The position numbers and the translations under genes were made by a program. Below are positions 139-50,870 of a stretch of DNA of 64,000 nt, piece after piece (the first letter of the stretch is position 1; each line of letters starts with the position of its first letter). This DNA is from Seriola aureovittata (lineage: Eukaryota > Chordata > Actinopteri > Carangiformes > Carangidae): the NCBI RefSeq assembly GCF_021018895.1, contig NC_079384.1, positions 18,157,640 to 18,221,639 of the forward strand. Direction: 5' to 3'. The notes under the pieces were generated by a model, which did no database searches, had not been told where the DNA came from, and worked only from the letters and a program-made list of their open reading frames with translations.

Positions 139-3100
139 CGAGAGAGTGAAGGCAGTCATTTGTCCGGACCAGGAGTCTGAGTGTCCGGATGACACTACTT
201 GCTGCCAGCTTCCTGACGGCTCCTGGGGCTGCTGTCCATTAGCCAAGGTGATATAAATGCTCACCCTCCCACAAATCCACACACATACCCAAAAACAATC
301 ACCTAAAACCAGAGGCTCAACACAAACCCCAAGCACTTCACACCAAGAAACACATTACACAGTCCACTAGTCAGCTTCTGATGCCGCTTGTGTGACTCCT
401 CTGTAAAAACACTCTGGTAGATAAACTGTCATTTTGAAGATCTTGTTATTTAAGACTCTAGTTCTCTGGTTATGAGCACTTCATGGGAATTAGAAAATGA
501 ACAGCTTGTTTATTTTTAATTAGAATATACTTCTTGTTTCAGAAACTGATCAATAAATTAGCCGCAACAGTAATGGAAATAATGTTTTCATACGTAAATG
601 AATTCCAATTGTTTCTTTGTTTTTGAGCGTCATCAAAACTTAACACTTCCTGATATTTTTCAAATCAAAAGTCTACCAACAAATGGAAGACTGCAAAATT
701 TTTATTGTGAAAATTCTGGAGAAAGTGTTGAGTTTCATTCATGGCAGCTTCACATCTTTGGTGATTCTTGCTGTACCGATGAATTAGCGATGTGGAAATG
801 TACATTATAAAGAATTTAACAACACAATAGCTAAACATAGAGGAAGATTTAAGTTTTTTTTAACTGGAGAACAGGGTAAATTAGAAATAAAATTAAAGAC
901 CCTGTTTGTACAGAGGTTTTTGATTTGTTCATGTCCAAATTGTACAGTTTATTGATCCTGGTAAACTAAAATCCATATATTTATAAATGTTATGTTTATA
1001 TGGTGATTTTATTTTTATAAGAAAGCAGTTATGGTTGGCTTGTCATACATTTATAATCCTTTCCCGCTATCAGCATCAGTGCTGCCGATCCCGTCTGCTT
1101 TACTTTGTACTTTTCCATCATCTGCAGGAAACTGTGTCCTCGGCTGAAGGGTGTCTCTGACTGTCAGAATGTATTCTCTTCTCTCTGCAGGCTGTGTGTT
1201 GTGAGGATAAGCGCCACTGTTGCCCTGAGGGAACAAAGTGTGATCTTGTTCACTCAAAGTGTGTCTCTGCCTCTCTGGAGTCCATCCCCATGCTGGAGAA
1301 GCTTCCTGCCAGAAAGAGGAAGAATAATGCAGGTGGGGAATTACTACTATTAAATAAACACCTTCAGACAAGCCATCCAATGGCCAAAGATCAACTTAAA
1401 AACTGTAATGTGAAACAGACATCTTGTAAATGAAGAAAAAAAGTCTCACTGATATTAATCTTTTTCTCCACAGTTATACTGCACTAATAACGAATGAATA
1501 TGTTTTTTTTCAGGTCTTTATGGTTCTACAGCTCCGACTGTCGGTTCAGTGTCGTGTCCTGATGGGAAAAGCAACTGTCCAAATGGTACCTCCTGTTGCC
1601 TGTCACCCAAGGGAGACTACAACTGCTGCTTTTACCCAGATGTATGTATGACTGGTACAAATACACAAGAGCTGAAAGTACTACTCGATTAAGCAGTTAG
1701 TCGGTTGTCAGAAAATGACTCAATACTTTTGATAAGTCGTTATTTCTGAAAGTCAAGCCACATATTTACATGTAATTTGATACTTTGATCATGTGCAGGC
1801 CGTATGCTGCAGCGACCAGATCCACTGTTGCCCCAGCAACACAACATGTGACTTGGAGCTTGAGATCTGCAGGTCTGGTCAGATCCATGTGCCGCTGATG
1901 AAGAAGATTCCTTCTATGCCCAACAACAGTAAGCCACTCACATCCATCTTTTTCTCCACAGTTATACGCAGATGATGCTGCACTAATAACGAATGAATAT
2001 GTTTCTTTTTCAGGTCTTTATGGTTCTCCAGCTCTGACTGTCGGTTCAGTGACGTGTCCTGGTGGGAAAAAGAGCTGTCCAGATGGTACCTCCTGTTGCC
2101 TGTCACCCAGTGGAGACTACAACTGCTGCTTTTACCCAGATGTATGTATGACTCTGGTGCAAATACACAAGAACTGAAAGTACTACTCAATTAAGCAGTT
2201 AGTCGGTTGACAGAAAATTACACAATACTTTTGATAAGTCGTTATTTCTGAAAGTCAAGCCACATATTTACATGTAATTTGATACTTTGATCATGTGCAG
2301 GCCGTATGCTGCAGCGACCATATCCACTGTTGCCCCAGCAACACAACATGTGACTTGGAGCTTGAGATCTGCAGGTCTGGTCAGATCCATGTGCCGCTGA
2401 TGAAGAAGATTCCTTCTATGCCCAACAACAGTAAGCCACTCACATCCATCTTTTTCTCCACAGTTATACGCAGATGATACTGCACTAATAACGAATGAAT
2501 ATGTTTTTCTCAGGTCTTTATGGTTCTACAGCTCCGACTGTCGGTTCAGTGTCGTGTCCTGGTGGGAAAAGCAACTGTCCAAATGGTACCTCCTGTTGCC
2601 TGTCACCCAAGGGAGACTACAACTGCTGCTTTTACCCAGATGTATGTATGACTGGTACAAATACACAAGAGCTGAAAGTACTACTCAATTAAGCAGTTAG
2701 TCGGTTGACAGAAAATTACACAATACTTTTGATAAGTCGTTATTTCTGAAAGTCAAGCCACATATTTACATGTAATTTGATACTTTGATCATGTGCAGGC
2801 CGTATGCTGCAGCGACCATATCCACTGTTGCCCCAGCAACACAACATGTGACTTGGAGCTTGAGATCTGCAGGTCTGGTCAGATCCATGTGCCGCTGATG
2901 AAGAAGATTCCTTCTCTACCCAACGACAGTAAGCATCCATTACTTATCATCTTGTTTAAAGTAGATTTAATAAAATTCTTTTTGTTTTCAAGTTGGAAAA
3001 GAAACAAGTATTGATCATTGATCCCTGTTCTTACCTCACTTTCTGTCAGTTGATTGTCCAGACAAGAAGTCAGCCTGTCCTGATGAAACCACATGCTGCC

Positions 3101-6100
3101 AGATGGCCAACAGCTCCTATGGCTGCTGTCCAATGCCTTATGTGAGTAATTGCCAGTTTATGGTTCTCTGAGAACAAGTTCTTAAGATCTACTAAATTAA
3201 ATGTGTTCATAGTTGTTCCGGATGGACACATTGGAAGGCATCCTTTAATTTGACTAAAGATTAAAAGAACACAGATAAAAAATCTTCTCAAAAACGGCAT
3301 TTGTTGGGTATTATTTTTTAAATTTATTAATTTTATAAATGTATTGATTATTCAATTTATTTATTATTTTAAAAAATAAGTTTAGAAATACAAATAAAGC
3401 ACAAAAATAAGAATAATAACATTAAAACAAACATTAAAAAAAGAAAGAAAAACCGTTCTACATTGATAACATTATCCAATTAACAGTAAACTTAATCCCA
3501 AAAGTTTTGAAAATGAAATTGAACTATGTCATGTTTAAGATATTTTTATGACAACGCTGTCTCCACAGTTCACTCAGTTCTATACCTGAAAATGATCAAA
3601 CTCAAGCATTAAATAATTTAAGCAAATACACATTGCATTAATATGAAAGTTGAACATTAGAAGGAACATTTCCATTTACTTACCAGTCATTAGTGTCAGA
3701 TTCTGAGTTTACCTGTTGGCTCTGCACATGAATAGATTGCTGAAGTGATAGTTCAGAGGAATTCAGCCTCAATACAGAATATACTGACCCTGAATGAGTT
3801 ACTTTCCTCTCTTTGTCAAGGCTGTCTGTTGCTCAGATCACATCCACTGCTGCCCTGAAGGCACAGAGTGTGACCTAATCCACAGCACCTGTGTGTCAGC
3901 CCGGGGAGACGTCACCATGGCCTCCAAGATCCCCGCTGCTGTGACAGAGGTGGTGGCAGCACAGAGCAAAGGTGAGAGTGGAGCAGTTAAAACCAGGAAG
4001 ACACTGAATTGGTCTCCCCCTGACTGATCTCAGAATCAGCAGTTTGAGGGGGATCATGACACCTGGTTAAATGCCTGAATGATGAACGATCTGGCTCACG
4101 GACAATCAGTCAGCCATATATATGGAAGCATACTTCCTTAAATGGTGTTAAGAACTCTCCTGAGTACTGTATGACAAAGTCCTCTGGGTTTACTGTAGCT
4201 GTGTGGGCTCACAGCTGAGACCGATCAGTACCACAAACATACAGACTCAACTTGACTCGGCTGCTCGCTTCCACCACCTACCACTATTGGACAGCAGACT
4301 TGAAGCTTGTTAGTGGATATTACTCCAGGTTGCTGCTGCTTGTGACTTTCAAGAGTATTGCTGCTGCAGTTCGCAGTTAATTTACAAAACTTTGTGTCAA
4401 TAACTATTTTTCATGTTGATTTAAATACTTCAATCATCTCCAGGTCATTTCTTATTTCTACTGTAAATACTCAGAACGTTCTGAGTATTTACAGTATATA
4501 TATATATATATACACATATACATACACACAGGAATAATAACACCTGAATATCCTAGCACCACTGTCGTCTTGACTGAGACTGTTCTGTGATTCAAAACTG
4601 ACCTTTACTTTCTGTTCAGAATTGCACCAAGAAACAACTTCTTTTTTTTTCTTTTTTTTTTGTGAGTGTTGTTAGGGACACAGACATCTTAACTTTATTT
4701 GGAATTGTTCATTAACAAAACCAACTGATGATTCCATGTTGACGTTCACTGTGAGCTTAGCATCGTGGCGATCATCGATCGACCCAAAGATATTCAGTTT
4801 ACAATGATATGAATCAGAGAAAAGAAGCAAATCATAGAACCCTGAACAGTTGAATGTTTGACATTTTTGTTTTTTAATGATTTAGGTATATTATCAAAGA
4901 TTGGTCTCTGTTAGTTCAGTTTCACCACAAAATCTCTAATGAAATTGTATTTAAATGAGAGAAGTTTGGTTATGTTGACACTGATAAAAGTTTGTGTTTA
5001 TCTTTCAGTCGGTGCTGTTCCGTGTAATGACTCTGTGGCCTGCGCTGACGGAAGCACCTGCTGTAAATCGCTAGAGGGAGAATGGGTCTGTTGTCCTTTA
5101 CCGAAGGTATCAAGGCTCACAGTGTTTGACTCTGCAGAGCTGCACAGGGGTGCTCAACACATGTCCTGACTCTTTAGACTATAATTCATCTGTTGTCTGC
5201 AGAGCTTTGTCCTTTAGCTGTCAGTGATGCTGAAAAATCACCAGAGAGAAAAAGAAGCAGAAAATGATGAAAATAACACTTTGCCAACTGTTAAACATGG
5301 TTGTGTAAATACCCTGCCTTGGGCACACAGGAAATGCTGCACAAATACAGGAAAAATGGTTTCCACTAAATATCAGCCATTTCTGGATGCAGATTTCCTG
5401 GTTGGTTGGTTGGTTGGTTGGCTGACATCTACAACAAGAATGATGATCCAAAGCAAACCTCAAAATCCCCTGTGAACCACTTCAAGAAACACGGGCTGAA
5501 GCTTTTTGAACACCCCGCCCTCTCCTGACCTGAACATTTGAAAATCTGTGGGTAGATCTGAAATCTGCTGTGCGAGCAGGACATACTAAAATATCTCAGA
5601 ACCTGAAAAGATCTGCAGGAAGAGGCTGAAAATTCAAAAACAGAAAGTCTCTAGAGTGTTTGCAAGCAGTGATATCTGACTACTGATTTAGTGGGGAGGC
5701 TAAACCTGTGCACAGTTACTGGTAGCTTTTCAAAATGAACAGTAACAGTACATCAACATTTAAGGAAAGGCTCATTTTAATGTCTGTTTGCTGCAGGAGT
5801 TGTATTTCACAGAATGTAATGCTGATGATTGTAGATCCTTACTCCAGCCTGTTTGCTTCACCTTCCCTGAAGGCTGTGTGCTGTGAGGACCACCTGCACT
5901 GCTGTCCCCATGGCACCGTTTGTAACCTGGCAGCGTCCACGTGTGACGATCCCGCGGGCAGCGCTGTAACGCCCTGGCTCAGCAAAGTGCCCGTCTTCCC
6001 CTTGCTGACCGACAACAGCAAGTGCGACAGATCCACGTCGTGCCCTGGAAAATCCACCTGCTGCAAGACGGCAAGTGGAGACTGGGCCTGCTGTCCTCTG

Positions 6101-9100
6101 CCTCAGGTGATATATAAGGACAGAGTGAGGACAGTGTTGAGGTCAAACCACACAGACACAGAGGCATTTAAAATCTTTCTTACACTGAAAATATGCATAA
6201 CATAACATAACTTTTGGCAGTTTATTAGGAACACCTGGCTAAAACTAAAGCATTCCTGCAATAAATCCTCCGTCATGACATTTATAATGTTCAGAGAGAT
6301 GTTGATTCATCTGTATGATCATTTTGGCTTCAGTTTCACTATGAGCTCTCTGGTTTCACTATAATCATATAGAGCGACAGTGAGTGGGGGGGGGGATAAA
6401 TGAATCCGTAAACAGTTCAGTTTCCTGTAAGTCCAGTATATTTCTGAAATTAGTCCCAGTAACTGACAAATATGGAAAAAGTTAAAAATGCATGATTTAT
6501 CAATTGTTTGCAAATGGCCACTCATTTACAGTGTATAGATTTTGTAATTGTGAAAAGATTCTTGTAGTTAACATTTTCATCGAAACAAATCAACATGATG
6601 ATAAATGTGCAACTTAAACCATCATACAACTGCTACAGTAATAAAACTAAAGTTTAAGCCTAAACAAAAAAAAATGCAAATACATTCTACAATATTATAA
6701 TAAATGGAAATTAGACAAAAAAACAAATTTTCCTCTTTTTAAAAGTAATAAAGTAAGTAAATCTTATTTTTATAGTTTAGTTTTACTTTGTTTTTATTTT
6801 ATTTTGTTCTATTTATTTGTTTTTATTTACATGTTTGCTCTTTTTATGTATTTGTACTCTGTGCTCTCACATTTGTTCATTTTCTGATTTTTTGTCTTCT
6901 CATGTCTGTAAAGCAGTTTGTGAACTTATTTTGCTACATACATTTTTATTTTATTTTATTTTATAGCTCTTTTAACCATTCTTAAAATAAGGTCCCATTT
7001 TAAACCAATACTTTCGAAGCTTTTAGTGCATCCACTTGCATATAAAACAATCATTTTCTTACACTTTTCATTCCGATACTATATAGGAAATAAAATATTA
7101 GTCACATTTTAAAAAGAGCATGAAAACAAAAGGAGATTGTAAATGGTCAATGACCTGCACTTATATAGAGCTTTTTCTAGTCTTAGAGACCACTCAAAGT
7201 GCTTTACAGTACTTGCAACAATCACCCTTTCACTCACATATTGATACACTGATGGAACAGCGATTGGTGTATGAATATGGATCAAACCACCAACCTTCTG
7301 ATTAGTGGACGACCTGCTCTACCTCCTGAGCCACATGACAGTATTCAGGCATTTAACAGGGCCTGGTTTTTCAGCTGCTCAGCTTCATGATGTGTGTGTC
7401 CTCTGTGTCACCGCCAGGCCGTGTGCTGCGACGATCACCAACACTGCTGCCCTCATGGCACAATCTGCAACCTGGAGGCTGAAACTTGTGACGACCCGTC
7501 AGGTTTTTCACCTTCCCTCCCCTGGGTGGAGAAAGTCTCCGCTCTGACCTCTGAGGTTCAGGATGAGAAATGCGACAAGGAGACCATGTGTCCGGGGGGC
7601 ACCACCTGCTGTAAGAAGAACTCTGGACAGTGGGCCTGCTGCCCCTTACCTAAGGTCAGTTTCTTCTTCTTCACAGTCAAAGGGCTTGTTCAGTGTGTGT
7701 GTGTGTGTGAGTGACTGTTGGTCATATGACTGGTGTATTTTGAATCACAGATTGCAGAGGATGTGTTTGTTTGGTGTGTGTTTGGTCCAGTCATGAAGAG
7801 GGAGCAGTTATTTCAGACGTCCATGGAAAAAAGTGGATGTTAGATGAGTTACAGATACAGATTTTTTTTTTTTTTTAAACAAAAATACTCTTTAATTCCT
7901 CTTTCTTCGTCGAATACTGAACGGATTATCTTTTGGTTCTTGACTGTTGGTCAGACAAAACAAGACATTTGAAGATGTCACTTTGAATTCTGAAACACTG
8001 GGAGAGACATTTCTCACAGGTTTCTGATGTTTGACCAAATAATCAAGAAAATAATTTGTAGATTGATAATGAAAAGACGTTACAATATGATCATGCATTA
8101 AATCAAAGAATAACACAGTGCACATCTTAATGATGAGAACAGCTGTGTTTTTTGGATAAAAGGAGAGCAGGAAGATTTCAGTGCTGCATTGCATTCTTTG
8201 ACTTGTATGTCATCTGTTGGAAGTCTTGTTGCGTAAAATATATAACATGTGTGGGACAGAGATCTGGCATTTACAGTCTGTGTTAAAGAGCCATTCAATC
8301 TTCTTCTCTCCAGGCTGTGTGCTGCAACGATCAAAAGCACTGCTGCCCCAAAGGCTACAAGTGTAACGTCGCTGAGCAGACCTGCGACAAGCCCGGACAC
8401 CTGAGCGTGCCCTGGTTGCTGAAGATCCCGGCCCTGCAGAAGCAGCCCGTTTCCGGCCCAGCTCTGCCGCCAGGAACATGTGTGACGCCAAGACCAGCTG
8501 CCCCAAGGACACAACCTGCTGCTTCATGGACAGGACCCACAAATGGGGCTGCTGCCCTCTGCCAAAGGTAAGTGAGGTGATCTCTATTAGTTTTCCACCA
8601 GTGTGAGGTTGTGAAATAACCACAGAGTTATCGTTGCTGTTCTCCAGGCCGTCTGTTGTAAAGATGGAAACCACTGCTGCCCCAGCGGCCACACCTGTGA
8701 GCCTCACCGGTCCTCCTGCTCAAAGGGCCCCCGTGTCATTCCCTGGTTCACCAAAGTGAGCGCTCTGACTGAGCCAGGGTCTGTGTCGGACGTTAAATGT
8801 GACGACAAAAGCAGCTGCGCCTCAGGAACGACCTGCTGTAAACTGCCGACGGGAGAGTGGGGCTGCTGCCCGCTGGTCAAGGTCTGTACATCACTGATTC
8901 ACATTTATGTTAGTTTGAGGAAAGATTGTCAATTTGAGCCTCAGTGATGAAACTGTTGGGTCTTTTAAAATTAAGTGTCTGAAGATAAGATTCAAGAAAG
9001 TTCTGTTCTTTTAATTCCTTGAAAACGGCCATATATTTTTATATTTTCTTAAGAATAAGTTGACTAAAGACTATTTTATATAAAATAAATATCAGTAACC

Positions 9101-11800
9101 AAATTGTTTCACAACATGGTTTTTCAGGGGAATGAAAGTTAGATATTATTTATCATAAAATTAGCATAAAGTTTTACTTTTCAATAACTAAAAACACTCA
9201 AAACAAGTGTTTTTTTGTTAAAACCCAACTTGAAAATTAACATCACCTTGTTTTATATATAATCTAAAATCAAACTGACGAACTGGATCGGATCCTAACT
9301 TTTAATTATCAAACTAATACTTATCATGCAGAGTTTAGTCTGTGTCATACACATACAATCGCTCAGACCACATGGATGTACATGACACAAAATATACTGT
9401 TGTCAAGAAAAAAACAAAATTATTATATTATATATTATATTGTAAACAAACAACTTTCTGTTCTCCCACAATCTCTAGAAATCAAATCAACAAAAAAAGA
9501 TTGTTTTCTAAAACACAATTCAAGTTCTTCATAGTCAACAAACCAGAGGAAAAAATAGTCTTTAGAGTCTGTAAATCATCATATAATGAGCAATAAAATA
9601 TAAAATGAATCTCATAAATCACAAAAGAAACAAAGCCTTTCCTCTTCAGGGACACCATTAAATCTGTCTGTTTCTACAGCTGATGGTAATGATGTAGCTG
9701 AATGTAGATATGGACACACACAACTTTGACTTGTGGTTGACTTTTGCTTTGTGTAAAAATATTTTTAATGTGACAATAAGTTGTTTTCCATCCACTAACC
9801 TGAGTGGAAATACTGAAAATTCATTAAAAAAAACCTAATTGTAGTCTTGAAATGCAGGTGTAAAACACTTGAGTCACACCACTGTTACTTTGTTTATTAT
9901 TATAATTATTATTGTTATTATCATTACATGAAACGGATTCTTCTTCTCTCTCCTCTTCAGGCGGTTTGCTGTGCGGACCACGAGCACTGCTGTCCTCAGG
10001 GCTACACCTGCAACATGCAAACGGGAACATGTGAGAAGAAGAAGGACGCGCTGGTCCACACCCTCCCTCAGAGCAAAGTGGTACGGTCCGAGCCGAGAGA
10101 CACGGGGGACGACACGGACGTACCATGCGACAGAACGGGGGAGTTTCGCTGCCCCAAACAAGAAACATGTTGCAAGATGTCCGCCACGGAGTGGGCCTGC
10201 TGCCCCTCGCCCAGGGTACGTTCACAATCCAAACTCACACCGACACTTCACACTTTGTTGTAGGGGAATTGGTTTTGTAAGAATTACTGTGATGTAATTT
10301 GAAATGTCTCTTCTGGTTTGGTCCTGTTGAACGTGGAGAATGTGACAAGTGAACATTATGTCACATGACCCAAAGAAACTGAAGCCACTTCCTGTTTTCT
10401 GCCTTGTTGAACAAGCAGTTTCCCGCTGTTGTCACATGTACTGTTTTATTTTGTTCCACTACTCTTTCGTGTGTCAGAGAGCGACGTGTTCCTCACGCGT
10501 CTGCAGGACACTCAGATATGATTTAACTTGACTGTGAAATGAATATTAGATAGATTATACATTAGAAAATCAGCTGACAGAGTCACTACGGACAAGTTAC
10601 ACAGGAATCTGATCTGGATAATGTCACATTAAATCTCTTGTTTACAAATATCACTGATGCAAACAAAGCTTGTGACTGTGTATAAAAACATCCAGGAATC
10701 GATCAGTGTTTCTTACATTAGTAGATTATTCAATTATCAAAACAGATTGATCAGCTGATTAATCTTTTTTAGCCATTTTTTTAAGCGTAACATACACAAT
10801 ATTTGGATTTTGTGCTGTTAGACAAAATGAGACATTTGAACCATATTAACACCTATTTACTTTAATTTTATAAACAGAATGATTATTGAAAAAATAATCG
10901 TCAGATTAAACGACAATACTTTGTAGCAGCTGTAGTGCATTTGAATTTAACCGTTTTAACTACCTGCAATGATCAGAGCTTTAAACATGTAAATGAGAAA
11001 TCTGGTTTTCTTAGACACGCAACCGTCTTCTAATCAGCTTTTTACAGGTGATCAGTGACAAAGACTTTAGACAGGGGAATTATCACCGTGACAACAGAGC
11101 GGCACAGTTAAAGGAAAGATCATCACACACTATAGCAATTTAAAAACAATCAAAACCAAAGTCTGACTAAAAGGGAAAGTAAGACAATGTAGTTTCATGA
11201 CATTGTTTTCACTGCTGAACATTTGACAAATTCAGGAGAGCTGTGCTTTAACTGCACCTTCAGTCTAAATGTGTATCCAACACACACTTTAAAATGTCAG
11301 AAAGCCAAGTCTAGAATAACTAACACACTGATTACTGATGTGTGTGTTTTTTAAATTTGGTGGTGGACATGTCGTTTTCTTGACCATTAGGATCACAGGT
11401 TGTATCTTAAAGCTGGTCAGCAACAGTTTTGAATTGACAGGACATTGATTATTTATCTGTTCATGTAGTCTTACACTTAGTAAAACACACCATGCAACTA
11501 ATGTGACTGAAACCTGCAGCTTAGGAAAGCACCATCTGACTGGAAGCTGTGAGGTTTAAAAAAATATTAACACCTGCAGTTTCAGCTGATTCTTCAGTTT
11601 AAGAATCGAAATCTGCAGCGTCTCAGTAAAACAAATATTTTTTGTTTTGACAGGCAACCTGCTGCTCCGACTCAAAGCACTGCTGCCCTGTGGGATACTC
11701 CTGTGACCAGAAGTCTGGAGGCTGCACTCTGAAAACCCAGCTGACCTGGGACACTTTGCTCGCGGACAGAAAGAGAGACTTGGTCCCACGTGGACTCTAA
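139..11800 (+). CDS. grna: progranulin (granulin precursor), 5'-truncated by window
   Basis: Secreted, lysosome-targeted cysteine-rich precursor processed into granulin peptides. Exons read by frame and splice sites: about 139-247, 1191-1332, 1514-1641, 1799-1928, 2014-2141, 2301-2430, 2514-2641, 2799-2928, 3050-3141, 3821-3971, 5009-5106, 5873-6106, 7418-7654, 8314-8567, 8648-8881, 9961-10215, 11654-11800 (TAA). They form eleven complete granulin modules with the family pattern C..C..CC..CC..CC.D..HCCP..C..C; each is split by a phase-0 intron just before the AVCC motif. The signal peptide and first exons lie upstream of the window. The start of the first exon is uncertain because several AG dinucleotides are possible. 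From the 5873 exon on, the C-half of one module and the N-half of the next share an exon; before that each half has its own exon. Exon 8314-8567 carries a frameshift, described separately. The long array fits the teleost grna type rather than short fish granulins. Confidence 0.93.
248..1190 (+). other. grna intron, no other gene seen
   Basis: AT-rich intron between the two halves of the first visible granulin module. Short open frames occur, but none shows codon bias or a family motif. Confidence 0.7.
1458..2935 (+). repeat. tandem triplication of a 500-bp granulin-module unit
   Basis: Three head-to-tail copies of a two-exon unit lie inside grna. N-half exons start at 1514, 2014 and 2514, exactly 500 bp apart; C-half exons start at 1799, 2301 and 2799. 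Exons and introns are nearly identical between copies. Visible differences include CAG (Gln) in copy 1 against CAT (His) in copies 2 and 3 after CCSD, a CPGGKKSCPDG variant in copy 2 against CPDGKSNCPNG or CPGGKSNCPNG in copies 1 and 3, and a 2-nt insertion in the copy 2 intron after GTATGTATGACT. All three copies keep reading frame and splice sites, so the protein gains full granulin modules. Similarity begins in the intron near 1458 and is lost soon after 2935. Confidence 0.93.
4459..4496. repeat. 38-bp perfect palindrome
   Basis: The sequence around the centre AACGTT (4475-4480) is its own reverse complement from 4459 to 4496 with no mismatch. A short TA run follows directly. It lies in the grna intron 3972-5008 and could form a cruciform. 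No function is evident. Confidence 0.9.
7134..7340. repeat. interspersed teleost repeat (SINE-like remnant)
   Basis: The segment contains the phrases TTATATAGAGCTTTTTCTAG, GACCACTCAAAGTGCTTTACA, GGATCAAACCACCAACCTTC and GTGGACGACCTGCTCTACC. I recognise these as parts of a very common fish interspersed repeat. A shorter relative lies at about 51170-51340. It sits in the grna intron 6107-7417. Family assignment is from memory, not from a search. Confidence 0.6.
8314..8567 (+). CDS. grna: grna exon with internal 1-nt frameshift
   Basis: The exon opens in frame with a granulin C-half (AVCCNDQKHCCPKGYKC) and linker, and closes with a clear N-half (CDAKTSCPKDTTCC, then WGCCPLPK) before the donor GTAAGT, but the two halves are in different frames. 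The exon is 254 nt, whereas the sister fused exons (5873-6106, 7418-7654, 8648-8881, 9961-10215) are 234, 237, 234 and 255 nt, all multiples of three. One base appears to be missing near 8449-8453 (CCCGTTTCC). As written, translation would leave the granulin frame, lose the cysteine pattern and stop after the next splice junction. It may be an assembly or sequencing error, or a real null or truncating allele; flanking exons look intact, which favours an error or a recent mutation. Confidence 0.85.
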
Positions 11801-37793: not shown

Positions 37794-42640
<4,847 letters not shown>

Positions 42641-47958: not shown

Positions 47959-50766
47959 CTAGACAGTTAAAAGTACATTTCCCACATGTACCACCATGAG
48001 TGAGGTGTCACAGAAAATAAAACTATAATGAGCTCTACCTGCTCCACCTTCAGCCTGTCTTGTGGCGCCGTGATTGAGTCCAGGGTGGGGGATGCTGTGT
48101 GCCCTGTAGCTGTAACCCAGGCTCAATGTGCTTTTGTCCCAGTACCAGGCGTTGGCGCGTAGAGGAAAGAACGGGGCCATGAATGCATCCCCTCTCTGGG
48201 CTTTATGGATTTCATCACTCACAGGGTAGCTTGCATTCTTGTGGCGCTGCAACCACTCTTCAAGAAGCCTGACACACATTTATAAAGCACAGAGAATATT
48301 GTACAAAGTGTTCAATAAATCATTGTTATTGTAACATTAACTTATCTTTGTTTTCAAACCTTAAAGGATAGGTTCTGTCATGGTTTTGAGTTTGAGTCTG
48401 CTCACTCATCCTTTCATTCAATCAGTCCAGTTGTGTGTGCACATGCACTTCTTTTTCATTTCAGACCCAGTAGAATCACCTGGCCTGCTCCTCCTGCCCA
48501 CTCACCTGCTCACCCATTCCCCATCCCGTCATCAGCTCCTAGAATACATACCGACCTGTTTCCAGATTGTCTTTGTGCATGTACCTTATCTTTCCAGTGC
48601 TCTGTTCTTTGCCTGCCTGCACTGACCCTTGTCATGTTTTTTGGTATTTGACTTTGATTTTGCCACAGTCTGACCTTTAGTACTTTGTTGATCTGTTTGG
48701 ATTTGTCTATCCTTTTTTCTCTTTACTTTAGACTCTTCACTTTTGCGTCTGCTTCCCGAGTCATGCTCCTGTGTCCCTTTTCTGAGAACCATGACAAATT
48801 CACGTTTTTTTTCGCATTTGTCTTAAAACAGTACGTGTATATGTGCACATTGAGACATTTGGTTTCATAATCAGATCAGAGATCCCTCCATAAGCAATTA
48901 CGGTGGGGCGCAATATCCAAAGCCCTCACTTTGTTTAAAAACTTCATTCCAAAGTTTAATCAAAGTTAATATGAGGCTTCAGCAGTCTTAAGTTAGACAA
49001 ACCAAGTGGTTATTTTTGTATTAGTGTCAAATTCCTACTTTGTGTTGCTATAATTTAAAACACTGTACATTTAGAAGATACACACTTCATCTGCAAAAGC
49101 CTCATATGAGCTTCAGATGATCATTTTTACACTGACCAAGGACTGTGGATTTTGCCCCACATCACCTGCTTCTGGAACTGCTTTGTGAAGTGGTCTCTCT
49201 CTGTGGCCAGTAGGGCAGGAGAAACAGTTACAGCAGCTAATAACCCTTTCATTGTACATATGGGCATGTCAGTATTGAATTCAAATACACTTCAAAAATA
49301 TCAATCTATCCTTAACTGGGAATTTTATCACAAATTAAAATGATATGACTTACTTGTCAACGAAGCTGTGGTGTACCATGAACAGGGGGTCATTGGCTGC
49401 AGTGGGGAGGTGAGACATTGTGCCATTCAAGTAATCGTGGACCAGGTTGTGCATAGAGGACTGCAGGTGTCGGGAATCTTGAGGAATGTCAAAACCTCAG
49501 AGGGCAAAATGACACAATTTAAATTGATTTAAAATTTCTTCACCTTGTTTTTTTCTTAGTTTACATCTTACGCTTTTACTGCTTTATATTCGAGAGTTCT
49601 TGCTTGTCAAATTGTTGAAGTTCTAGTGGCAGACATTTGAACTTAAAGTCACCAGTTCTTCAATAAGAAATATAATTTAATAATGCATGTTAAGTCATTT
49701 ACCCTCTAGTTTGCTCCTGAAGCTGTTCCTGGATCTGCCGTTATATGGAGGTGTGTCATAATTGTCAGTTCCCAGCATGTCATTAACATCACCCATGTTC
49801 GGCAAAGTGTCGGCAGTTTGATCCATTCCAGGTTTTCGGGTTATAGGTGCAGGTGAAGGGTCATCTGGGCGGCTGCAGATCATACCAAGACCTTCGTCAA
49901 GAACACATGCGGTCTGTGGAGAAAAGAAAGATGAGTCGGAGCAAGAGAAAGAAGACACGTGGAAAAGAATAGGAATGATATCTCACCTTCCACTTTGAGA
50001 ATCGGGAGGCCTTGTCTATAAGACCATCTGGGCCAACTGCTCCAAAGTAGTCATTGTTGCAGATGTTGCAGTTGGTGTGTCTGGTCCAGTCCCAATACGG
50101 AATGTAGAAATCTTCTTTCCCTGTGAGCAATCTGATCTCCCTCTCAATAAAGAGTAGGAACACTCTGTGCCAGAATGGGAAAGCAGGACCCCGGTGCGCA
50201 GCGTCGTCCTCAGTATCAGCATACTTCTTTGCTGCATAGTAGTGCAACCATACATACAGATCATAGACAGTTGCGCTGTGAAATTTAAAGTTGCTGAACA
50301 CTGTTGTGTCATTGCTGGTAAGGATCATGTAACGGTTGCTGGTGTTGTGTTTTGCGTGGTCCAGGCTTGAGAGGAAACTCTCCCTCTCAGAATCATTCAT
50401 ATCTGTTATCTCTTTCCTTTCCACGTGGTGCGGTTCTGTACAGTCGGGTCCTTTCCAACCCGGGAGGCACACACCACAGTCAAATCCATCATAGTTGTCA
50501 AAGCATTTACACACATAAGTATAGAAGGCGCTTGGCCAGTCCACCCTGTAGTCAAATGGTGAGAGGGTTTCTCTAGCAGGTGCTGCACAGATCCCTCGTC
50601 TTGAGTTTTGTCCACAAGGAGAACCATCTTTCCAGGGGGGACAACATGTCTTGGTGTCCAGGGCCTCCTGTGTCGTACAGGCGTGTGGAAACTGAGCCTC
50701 CACGTCTGTGAGGCTTGTCAGATAGAATAAAAAGACCAAATACAACCACTGAAACGATAGCAGCAT
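47959..50766 (-). CDS. tyrosinase-like type 3 copper oxidase
   Basis: Minus-strand exons 50766-49987, 49913-49703, 49495-49354 and 48268-47959 give 480 aa plus TAG. Residues 1-24 form a signal peptide; the mature start (QFPHAC) and cysteine-rich region up to about 110 ([23 protein letters not shown]) resemble tyrosinase. CuA histidines H175, H191, H200 and CuB H346, H350, H373 are all present ([23 protein letters not shown]). Intron phases 0, 1 and 2 equal those of vertebrate TYR. N-glycosylation sequons occur at NTS and NDT near 141-154. Tyrosinases oxidise phenols to quinones in melanin synthesis, but this protein is clearly diverged and its substrate is unknown. No C-terminal transmembrane segment is visible; an alternative donor (GCAG|GTAGAG at 48039/48038) might lead to an unseen last exon. 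It is not orthologous-looking to tyr, tyrp1 or dct. Confidence 0.88.
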
Positions 50767-50870
50767 GGTGCAGGAGATGAAGACAGATCACTGCACTACT
50801 TGAGCTCAGGATGCAGCAAACTAACCAGCTTGTTGCTGCAGCTTCCTTTTTAAAGGGCAACTGTTGTGAG
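50767..50870 (-). promoter_or_regulatory. candidate promoter and 5' UTR of tyrosinase-like gene
   Basis: On the minus strand, a TATA-like CCTTTAAAAAGG lies near 50858-50847, about 80-90 nt before the ATG at 50766. The spacing fits a short leader with no 5' intron. No canonical CATGTG M-box was seen close by. Confidence 0.4.

What the first reader, a model, noticed from the sequence alone, without database searches (positions are those of the whole stretch)
1458..2935. Fresh triplication of a granulin module inside progranulin
Three 500-bp units, exon and intron alike, are nearly identical and keep frame and splice sites. The period is the same for the N-half exons (1514, 2014, 2514). This is protein-domain gain by unequal crossing-over caught in the act, and copy number may vary between individuals. 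Copy 2 has changed residues in the loop between cysteines (KKSCPDG).
Basis: seen in the sequence. Interest (0 to 1): 0.75.

Follow-up and report, generated by a model that had tools for sequence, protein, structure and literature searches.

The report
Tandem granulin array in amberjack-like progranulin
A fish progranulin gene carries three near-identical tandem copies of one of its protein modules, a known habit of this gene family; the copies are probably not fresh but older than the split from a sister species, and seem to stay alike because they exchange sequence.

Summary
Window 1447-2934 holds three head-to-tail units of 488, 502 and 498 nt, about 94.5% identical. Each is one N-half plus one C-half granulin exon with introns, phase 1-0-1, so frame survives. 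The gene is teleost granulin b (grnb), from a fish very close to, but distinct from, Seriola dumerili (622 of 636 residues outside the array identical).

'Fresh, caught in the act' is not supported. S. dumerili grnb has the same three modules with the same copy-2 signature; Trachinotus anak has 11 copies and Echeneis naucrates 7.

Differences between copies fall in blocks. N-halves group partly by type across genera, C-halves by species, on few columns. Best reading: an old carangid array kept similar by conversion and unequal crossing-over.

Recurrent near-identical module tandems in progranulin are published (PMC4527844). Apparently new: the lineage, the N-terminal position and the half-module discordance. 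Copy-number polymorphism could not be tested.

The parts
156..247 (+). grnb module 2, N-half exon (module 1 lies upstream of the window, in L004)
   Evidence: exon model; upstream exons; module 2 plus linker 77 of 77 residues identical to S. dumerili
1191..1332 (+). grnb module 2, C-half exon
   Evidence: module 2 PF00396 E 1.6e-17
1447..1934 (+). Array unit 1 (module 3a): N exon 1514-1641, C exon 1799-1928
   Evidence: PF00396 E 3.5e-15
1935..2436 (+). Array unit 2 (module 3b, ancestral-like N-half): N exon 2014-2141, C exon 2301-2430
   Evidence: PF00396 E 6.5e-14; polarity
2437..2934 (+). Array unit 3 (module 3c): N exon 2514-2641, C exon 2799-2928
   Evidence: PF00396 E 1.5e-14
3050..3971 (+). 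grnb module 4: N exon 3050-3141, C exon 3821-3971
5009..11800 (+). grnb modules 5-10: N exon 5009-5106, five CN exons (5873-6106, 7418-7654, 8314-8567, 8648-8881, 9961-10215), last C exon 11654-11800 with stop
   Evidence: exon 8314-8567 is 254 nt, out of frame

Best explanation
This is a three-copy tandem array of module 3 of granulin b in a Seriola-like carangid. One module-sized unit (intron, N exon, intron, C exon) was duplicated in an ancestor of at least the window species and S. dumerili, and by the N-half evidence probably before Seriola and Trachinotus split. The breakpoints lie in introns, and because the unit begins and ends in phase 1, any number of copies stays in frame and adds one complete 12-cysteine granulin per copy. 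Unequal crossing-over between units then changed copy number by lineage (3, 11, 7), while gene conversion or crossover between units keeps introns and C exons alike, so that the copies look young. The N exon alone keeps marked differences: an ancestral-like type (copy 2) and a derived type (copies 1 and 3). Shown: structure, frame, blocks of similarity, shared copies in S. dumerili and the copy numbers, at protein level. Inferred: conversion as the homogeniser, the pre-Trachinotus origin, and the product (extra granulins from a longer precursor, as progranulin is processed in general).
For: Structure, frame and splice sites. One locus with three copies in a 31-contig assembly. S. dumerili P0002 has three copies with a matching copy-2 type. 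T. anak P0121 has 11 copies in the order A B C B C A B C A B C; E. naucrates P0143 has 7 alternating X Y plus a cut N-half. Of 47 grnb-like proteins recognised by pattern among the 272 fetched, 33 have one copy (one of them P0005, a one-copy isoform model of S. dumerili), 9 are undetermined, 1 gives 0, and the 4 with more come from these three species, all Carangiformes. Blocks: 28 variable events in 7 runs of odd-copy type against a shuffled mean of 18.7; with an omitted homopolymer gap put in, 29 events in 9 runs against 19.1, 0 of 20,000 shuffles as low. A K in SPKGDY is in window copies 1 and 3 but in no S. dumerili copy, and a K in CCKDH is in S. dumerili copies 1 and 2 only: exchange after the split. 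N-half tree: Seriola copies 1 and 3 with T. anak B and C (91/94, 94/94); holding all T. anak copies together is rejected (AU p 0.010), all Seriola copies likewise (p 0.031). C-half tree: T. anak copies of all types together (92/94).
Against: With the ends of the unit and homopolymer events left out and neighbouring changes merged, the block signal is modest: 17 events, 6 runs against 10.3, 392 of 20,000 shuffles as low. Half-module trees rest on 29 and 24 columns with few starred forks (2 of 19 and 1 of 17), and the clade tests were run after seeing the tree. Only proteins of relatives were available, no introns. The S. dumerili, T. anak and Echeneis models may hide collapse or over-expansion. 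A recent triplication here plus convergence on the S. dumerili copy types is unlikely but not excluded.
Confidence: 0.75

Rival explanations
1. Fresh triplication within this species by unequal crossing-over, still polymorphic.
For: High identity of exons and introns; noncoding differences between copies 2 and 3 only 4 of 234 sites.
Against: Same three copies and same middle-copy residues in S. dumerili; copy 1 differs from copies 2 and 3 at 10 of 224 and 9 of 223 noncoding sites; block structure.
Confidence: 0.08
2. Positive selection drove amino-acid change in the N exon after duplication (a neofunctionalised loop), rather than an old tract merely escaping conversion.
For: Copies 2 and 3: 9 N-exon substitutions, all nonsynonymous, none at 30.8 synonymous sites; against introns plus synonymous sites (4 of 265) Fisher p 0.0015, or 0.027 with adjacent changes merged. 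Copies 1 and 2: p 0.025 unmerged. Within-array pairs with N difference at least 4 and at least 4 times the C difference: 10 of 15 distinct-copy pairs (counted from the list), against 3 of 990 pairs of single-copy orthologues.
Against: That all 9 are nonsynonymous by chance has probability 0.086. Inside the divergent block alone 9 of 98 against 2 of 63 neutral sites gives p 0.12, so an older tract explains it nearly as well. Copies 1 and 2 with changes merged: p 0.16. N greater than C is not general in other progranulin arrays: Maylandia grna P0166 0.014/0.123, zebrafish grna P0119 0.112/0.103. Array pairs are not independent.
Confidence: 0.3
3. Assembly artefact: false duplication of one or two real units.
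For: Near-identical tandems are a known trouble for assemblers (general knowledge); a one-base frame break in exon 8314-8567 suggests that base errors may exist nearby.
Against: The copies differ by clustered changes including an indel of about 11 nt; a separate S. dumerili protein record has three copies; the array is only 1.5 kb on a contig of 22.66 Mb.
Confidence: 0.04

Closest known systems
Granulin b of Seriola dumerili (P0002; isoform models P0001, P0005)
   Same: Three copies of the same module in the same place with the same copy-2 N-half type; 622 of 636 residues outside the array identical (P0001)
   Different: Copy 2 ends SLPND like copy 3 there, SMPNN like copy 1 here; the K residues shared between copies differ; isoform models X6 and X5 carry two and one copies, X5 joining N1 to C3, either exon skipping or mis-mapped reads
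Granulin b arrays of Trachinotus anak (P0121) and Echeneis naucrates (P0143)
   Same: Expansion of grnb after module 2; N-halves vary between copies, C-halves nearly constant
   Different: 11 copies with a three-type order; 7 copies with a two-type order, and in Echeneis the next module is cut
Recurrent near-identical module tandems in progranulins (Palfree et al. 2015, PMC4527844; abstract, passages and sections 14, 16, 18 and 19 seen)
   Same: The same phenomenon, reported there for Aplysia, Nematostella, oyster, sea urchin, amphioxus, Xenopus and zebrafish GrnA modules 4-7
   Different: That paper places vertebrate repeats nearer the carboxyl end and calls the third N-terminal module conserved; here the expanded module is the third, made by separate N and C exons, in GrnB. 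The parts seen do not mention gene conversion (0 occurrences listed)

Membership tests
Granulin domain (PF00396) progranulin gene | 12-cysteine granulin modules above the Pfam cut-off | tested here: met
   Module 2 and the three copies score 52.3-63.8 bits against cut-off 20.9
Granulin domain (PF00396) progranulin gene | N and C half-module exons, phase 0 inside a module | tested here: met
   17 exons modelled in the window
GrnB orthology group | Closest to annotated granulin b; five CN exons before the last C exon; 12-cysteine second module | tested here: met
   zebrafish GrnB exon pattern in PMC4527844 Table 2; grna-type and short-form genes sit on other contigs
GrnB orthology group | GrnB gene neighbourhood (synteny) | not tested
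   Neighbours were only glimpsed (Arf and tyrosinase exons)
Recent copy-number variant | Absent from close relatives | tested here: not met
   Same copies in S. dumerili
Recent copy-number variant | Variable between individuals | not testable with these tools
   One assembly only
Concerted evolution by gene conversion or unequal crossing-over | Blocks of similarity between copies and species-wise homogenisation of some segments | tested here: met
   Runs of site types, strong over the whole unit, modest for the inner part; N/C tree discordance on 29 and 24 columns

The most novel reading that the evidence does not exclude
In carangiform grnb, module 3 is a long-lived hypervariable array in which the two halves of one protein domain evolve under opposite regimes: C exons and introns are homogenised within each species by conversion, while N exons hold old, trans-specific types kept apart by selection for diverse N-half surfaces (T. 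anak type A and B modules differ at 14 of 29 N-half and 0 of 24 C-half residues).
Probability: 0.3. Interest if true: 0.6.

Novelty: new member of a known kind. Interest (0 to 1): 0.36.

Why it matters
It gives a vertebrate progranulin with a lineage-restricted array of near-identical modules: 3, 11 and 7 copies in three carangiform genera, against one in 33 of 47 other or partial grnb-like models examined. That is a natural test of how module number and N-half type affect progranulin processing and signalling, and a compact case for studying how conversion and selection act on two exons of one domain. Haploinsufficiency of human progranulin causes frontotemporal dementia (abstract of PMC4527844), and what extra granulin modules do is open.

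Tried and rejected
Tandem Repeats Finder did not list the array; its longest period is 500. A clean claim of positive selection was considered and weakened by the within-block test. A general rule that N-halves always diverge more than C-halves in progranulin arrays was tested on the array-bearing proteins among those fetched and is false (the rows there are redundant, many being isoforms). Flanking repeats as the cause of the first duplication were looked for by aligning flanks and junctions: no long shared sequence was seen at the ends. Naming the species: the held genome has 647.09 Mb; S. lalandi 648.34, S. aureovittata 649.86 and T. ovatus 647.5 Mb are quoted in PMC11047736 (passages), so size does not decide; protein similarity points to Seriola. 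One search counted 47 orthologous modules, two of them not orthologous (P0029, P0196); these were dropped (45 left). The rule gives 6 for Echeneis because it takes some array modules for module 4; 7 is read. The runs test was made on a hand-typed list that left out one homopolymer gap and one three-way site; one search puts the gap back and adds a stricter inner-part test. That weaker inner result made me lower the confidence of the best explanation from 0.78 to 0.75. A rough date from protein difference (14 of 636 to S. dumerili, 61 of 636 to T. anak; Trachinotus-Seriola calibration 52.4-57.9 Mya in PMC10608450, passages; 66.69 Mya for the Trachinotinae split in PMC7370159, passages) would put the window/S. 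dumerili split near 12-15 Mya; only indicative. Passages of PMC8807568 and PMC5571200 and section 24 of PMC11047736 gave no date for that split. Literature searches: (21 papers, 20 listed; 1 paper; 387, 12 listed; 165, 10 listed; 357, 10 listed) showed no report of this array in what was listed; the lists are cut, so absence from print is not shown.

Full report
What is there. The first 11.8 kb of the window are most of a progranulin gene. Seventeen exons could be placed with AG/GT borders and consistent phases; the two exons of module 1, the first with a signal-peptide-like start, lie just upstream (L004). Without the repeats the gene would have ten modules; module 3 is present three times, so there are twelve. 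Units run 1447-1934, 1935-2436 and 2437-2934. Each holds an N-half exon of 128 nt and a C-half exon of 130 nt; module borders are phase 1 and the intron inside the module is phase 0, so a unit can be added or lost without a frame change. A search of the held assembly with the unit found it only here, three times.

Which gene, which fish. The closest hits in the protein search are S. dumerili granulin b models (96% and 81% identity over the whole query), and the further hits above 55% identity that carry a name are mostly granulin b (120 of 982 hits listed). The five CN exons match the GrnB plan of zebrafish in PMC4527844 Table 2. Further granulin matches lie on contig C17 (grna type, with its own internal repeats at 78-81% identity) and C16 (short form). 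Outside the array the protein matches S. dumerili at 77/77, 308/317 and 237/242 residues, and T. anak at 71/77, 285/317 and 219/242. The fish is therefore most likely another Seriola; the species is not shown.

How old. S. dumerili P0002 has the same three modules: copies 1 and 3 with SNCPNG, copy 2 with GGK-SCPDG, as here. Of 47 grnb-like proteins recognised by pattern, 33 have a single module 3 (one of them the S. dumerili isoform model P0005), 9 could not be settled, 1 gives none, and 4 have more: two S. dumerili models, T. anak and E. naucrates. T. anak has 11 copies in a repeating three-type order and E. naucrates 7 in a two-type order. A different near-identical array, mixing modules 2 and 3, is in Cottoperca gobio (P0053; Perciformes). 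So the array is shared within Seriola and its copy number differs between genera; it is not an event seen in one individual.

Polarity. In 45 single-copy orthologous modules, N-half positions 7, 10 and 19 are S in 38, D in 34 and S in 32; N, N and K occur there in 0, 2 and 0. Copy 2 has S, D, S; copies 1 and 3 have N, N, K. The K at position 6 of copy 2 is its only private change in the loop (S in 42 of 45), and S. dumerili copy 2 has T there. The N at position 10 of copies 1 and 3 makes an NGT sequon (motif recalled, not tested).

Exchange between copies. Along the unit the variable sites fall into blocks: copy 1 odd in the upstream intron, copy 2 odd through the N exon and the first 32 nt of the next intron, copy 1 odd in the rest of that intron and the start of the C exon, copy 3 odd at the end. 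Over the whole unit 29 events make 9 runs against a shuffled mean of 19.1 (0 of 20,000 as low); but the end blocks are partly old flanks, and with these and homopolymer events left out and neighbours merged, 17 events make 6 runs against 10.3 (392 of 20,000) (a first version left out one gap). Species-private residues are shared by two copies in each species (K of SPKGDY in window copies 1 and 3; K of CCKDH in S. dumerili copies 1 and 2), and the linker end of copy 2 matches copy 1 here but copy 3 there. This is most simply read as exchange after the species split.

Half-module discordance. N-halves: Seriola copies 1 and 3 fall with T. anak types B and C (91/94, 94/94); T. anak type A stands apart; holding all T. 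anak copies together is rejected at AU p 0.010, all Seriola copies at 0.031. C-halves: T. anak copies of all types group together (92/94), and types A and B are identical at 24 of 24 sites. Mean N and C differences between copies are 0.115/0.028 in the window, 0.092/0.056 in S. dumerili, 0.214/0.021 in T. anak and 0.158/0.036 in E. naucrates, against 0.207/0.247 among 45 single-copy orthologues. Of 15 distinct-copy pairs within arrays 10 have an N difference of at least 4 residues and at least four times the C difference, against 3 of 990 orthologue pairs. These are few columns and dependent pairs, and other progranulin arrays go either way, so this is not a rule of the family.

Selection or spared tract. 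Copies 2 and 3 differ by 9 replacement and 0 silent N-exon changes, against 4 of 265 neutral sites in introns and silent positions (p 0.0015; 0.027 with neighbours merged). Restricted to the block itself the contrast is 9 of 98 against 2 of 63 (p 0.12). I keep selection as a live rival, not a result.

Known or new. Near-identical tandem modules are a published, recurrent feature of progranulin (PMC4527844; abstract, passages and sections 14, 16, 18 and 19 seen), and closely similar domains within zebrafish progranulin-A were described in 2005 (PMC1310530; abstract and one section seen). The S. dumerili protein with three copies is in public databases. The cut listings of searches showed no report of the carangiform grnb array, of its place in the third module that PMC4527844 calls conserved, or of the N/C discordance. 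Hence a new member of a known kind, of modest interest, with a more interesting reading that needs genomic DNA of relatives.

Noticed in passing
window 8314-8567: This CN exon is 254 nt while its four sibling CN exons are multiples of three; the frame breaks between its C-half and N-half, whereas S. dumerili and T. anak read on. Either an assembly base error or a truncating allele that would remove modules 8-10.
   Followed up: partly
P0001, P0002, P0005 (S. dumerili) against window 1514-2928: S. dumerili models carry two, three and one copies; the one-copy model joins N1 to C3. Phase symmetry would allow such exon skipping, but ambiguous read mapping among near-identical exons would give the same picture.
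   Followed up: partly
P0143 (Echeneis naucrates), residues about 188-201 and 770-782: The array is flanked by remnants: a linker like the Seriola C-exon end (HFPLMKKIPALPNN) before it and a cut N-half after it, suggesting deletion of neighbouring modules.
   Followed up: no
L017 and L018 (contig C17): The grna-type gene of the same genome has its own CN-exon repeats at 78-81% identity, less alike than the grnb array.
   Followed up: partly
window 37794-38084 (+) and 49898-50787 (-): Neighbouring genes: an Arf family exon (PF00025, E 7.7e-18) and a tyrosinase exon (PF00264, E 1.9e-16).
   Followed up: no
P0053 (Cottoperca gobio granulin b): A different near-identical array built from module-2-like C-halves and module-3-like N-halves, outside Carangiformes.
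   Followed up: no
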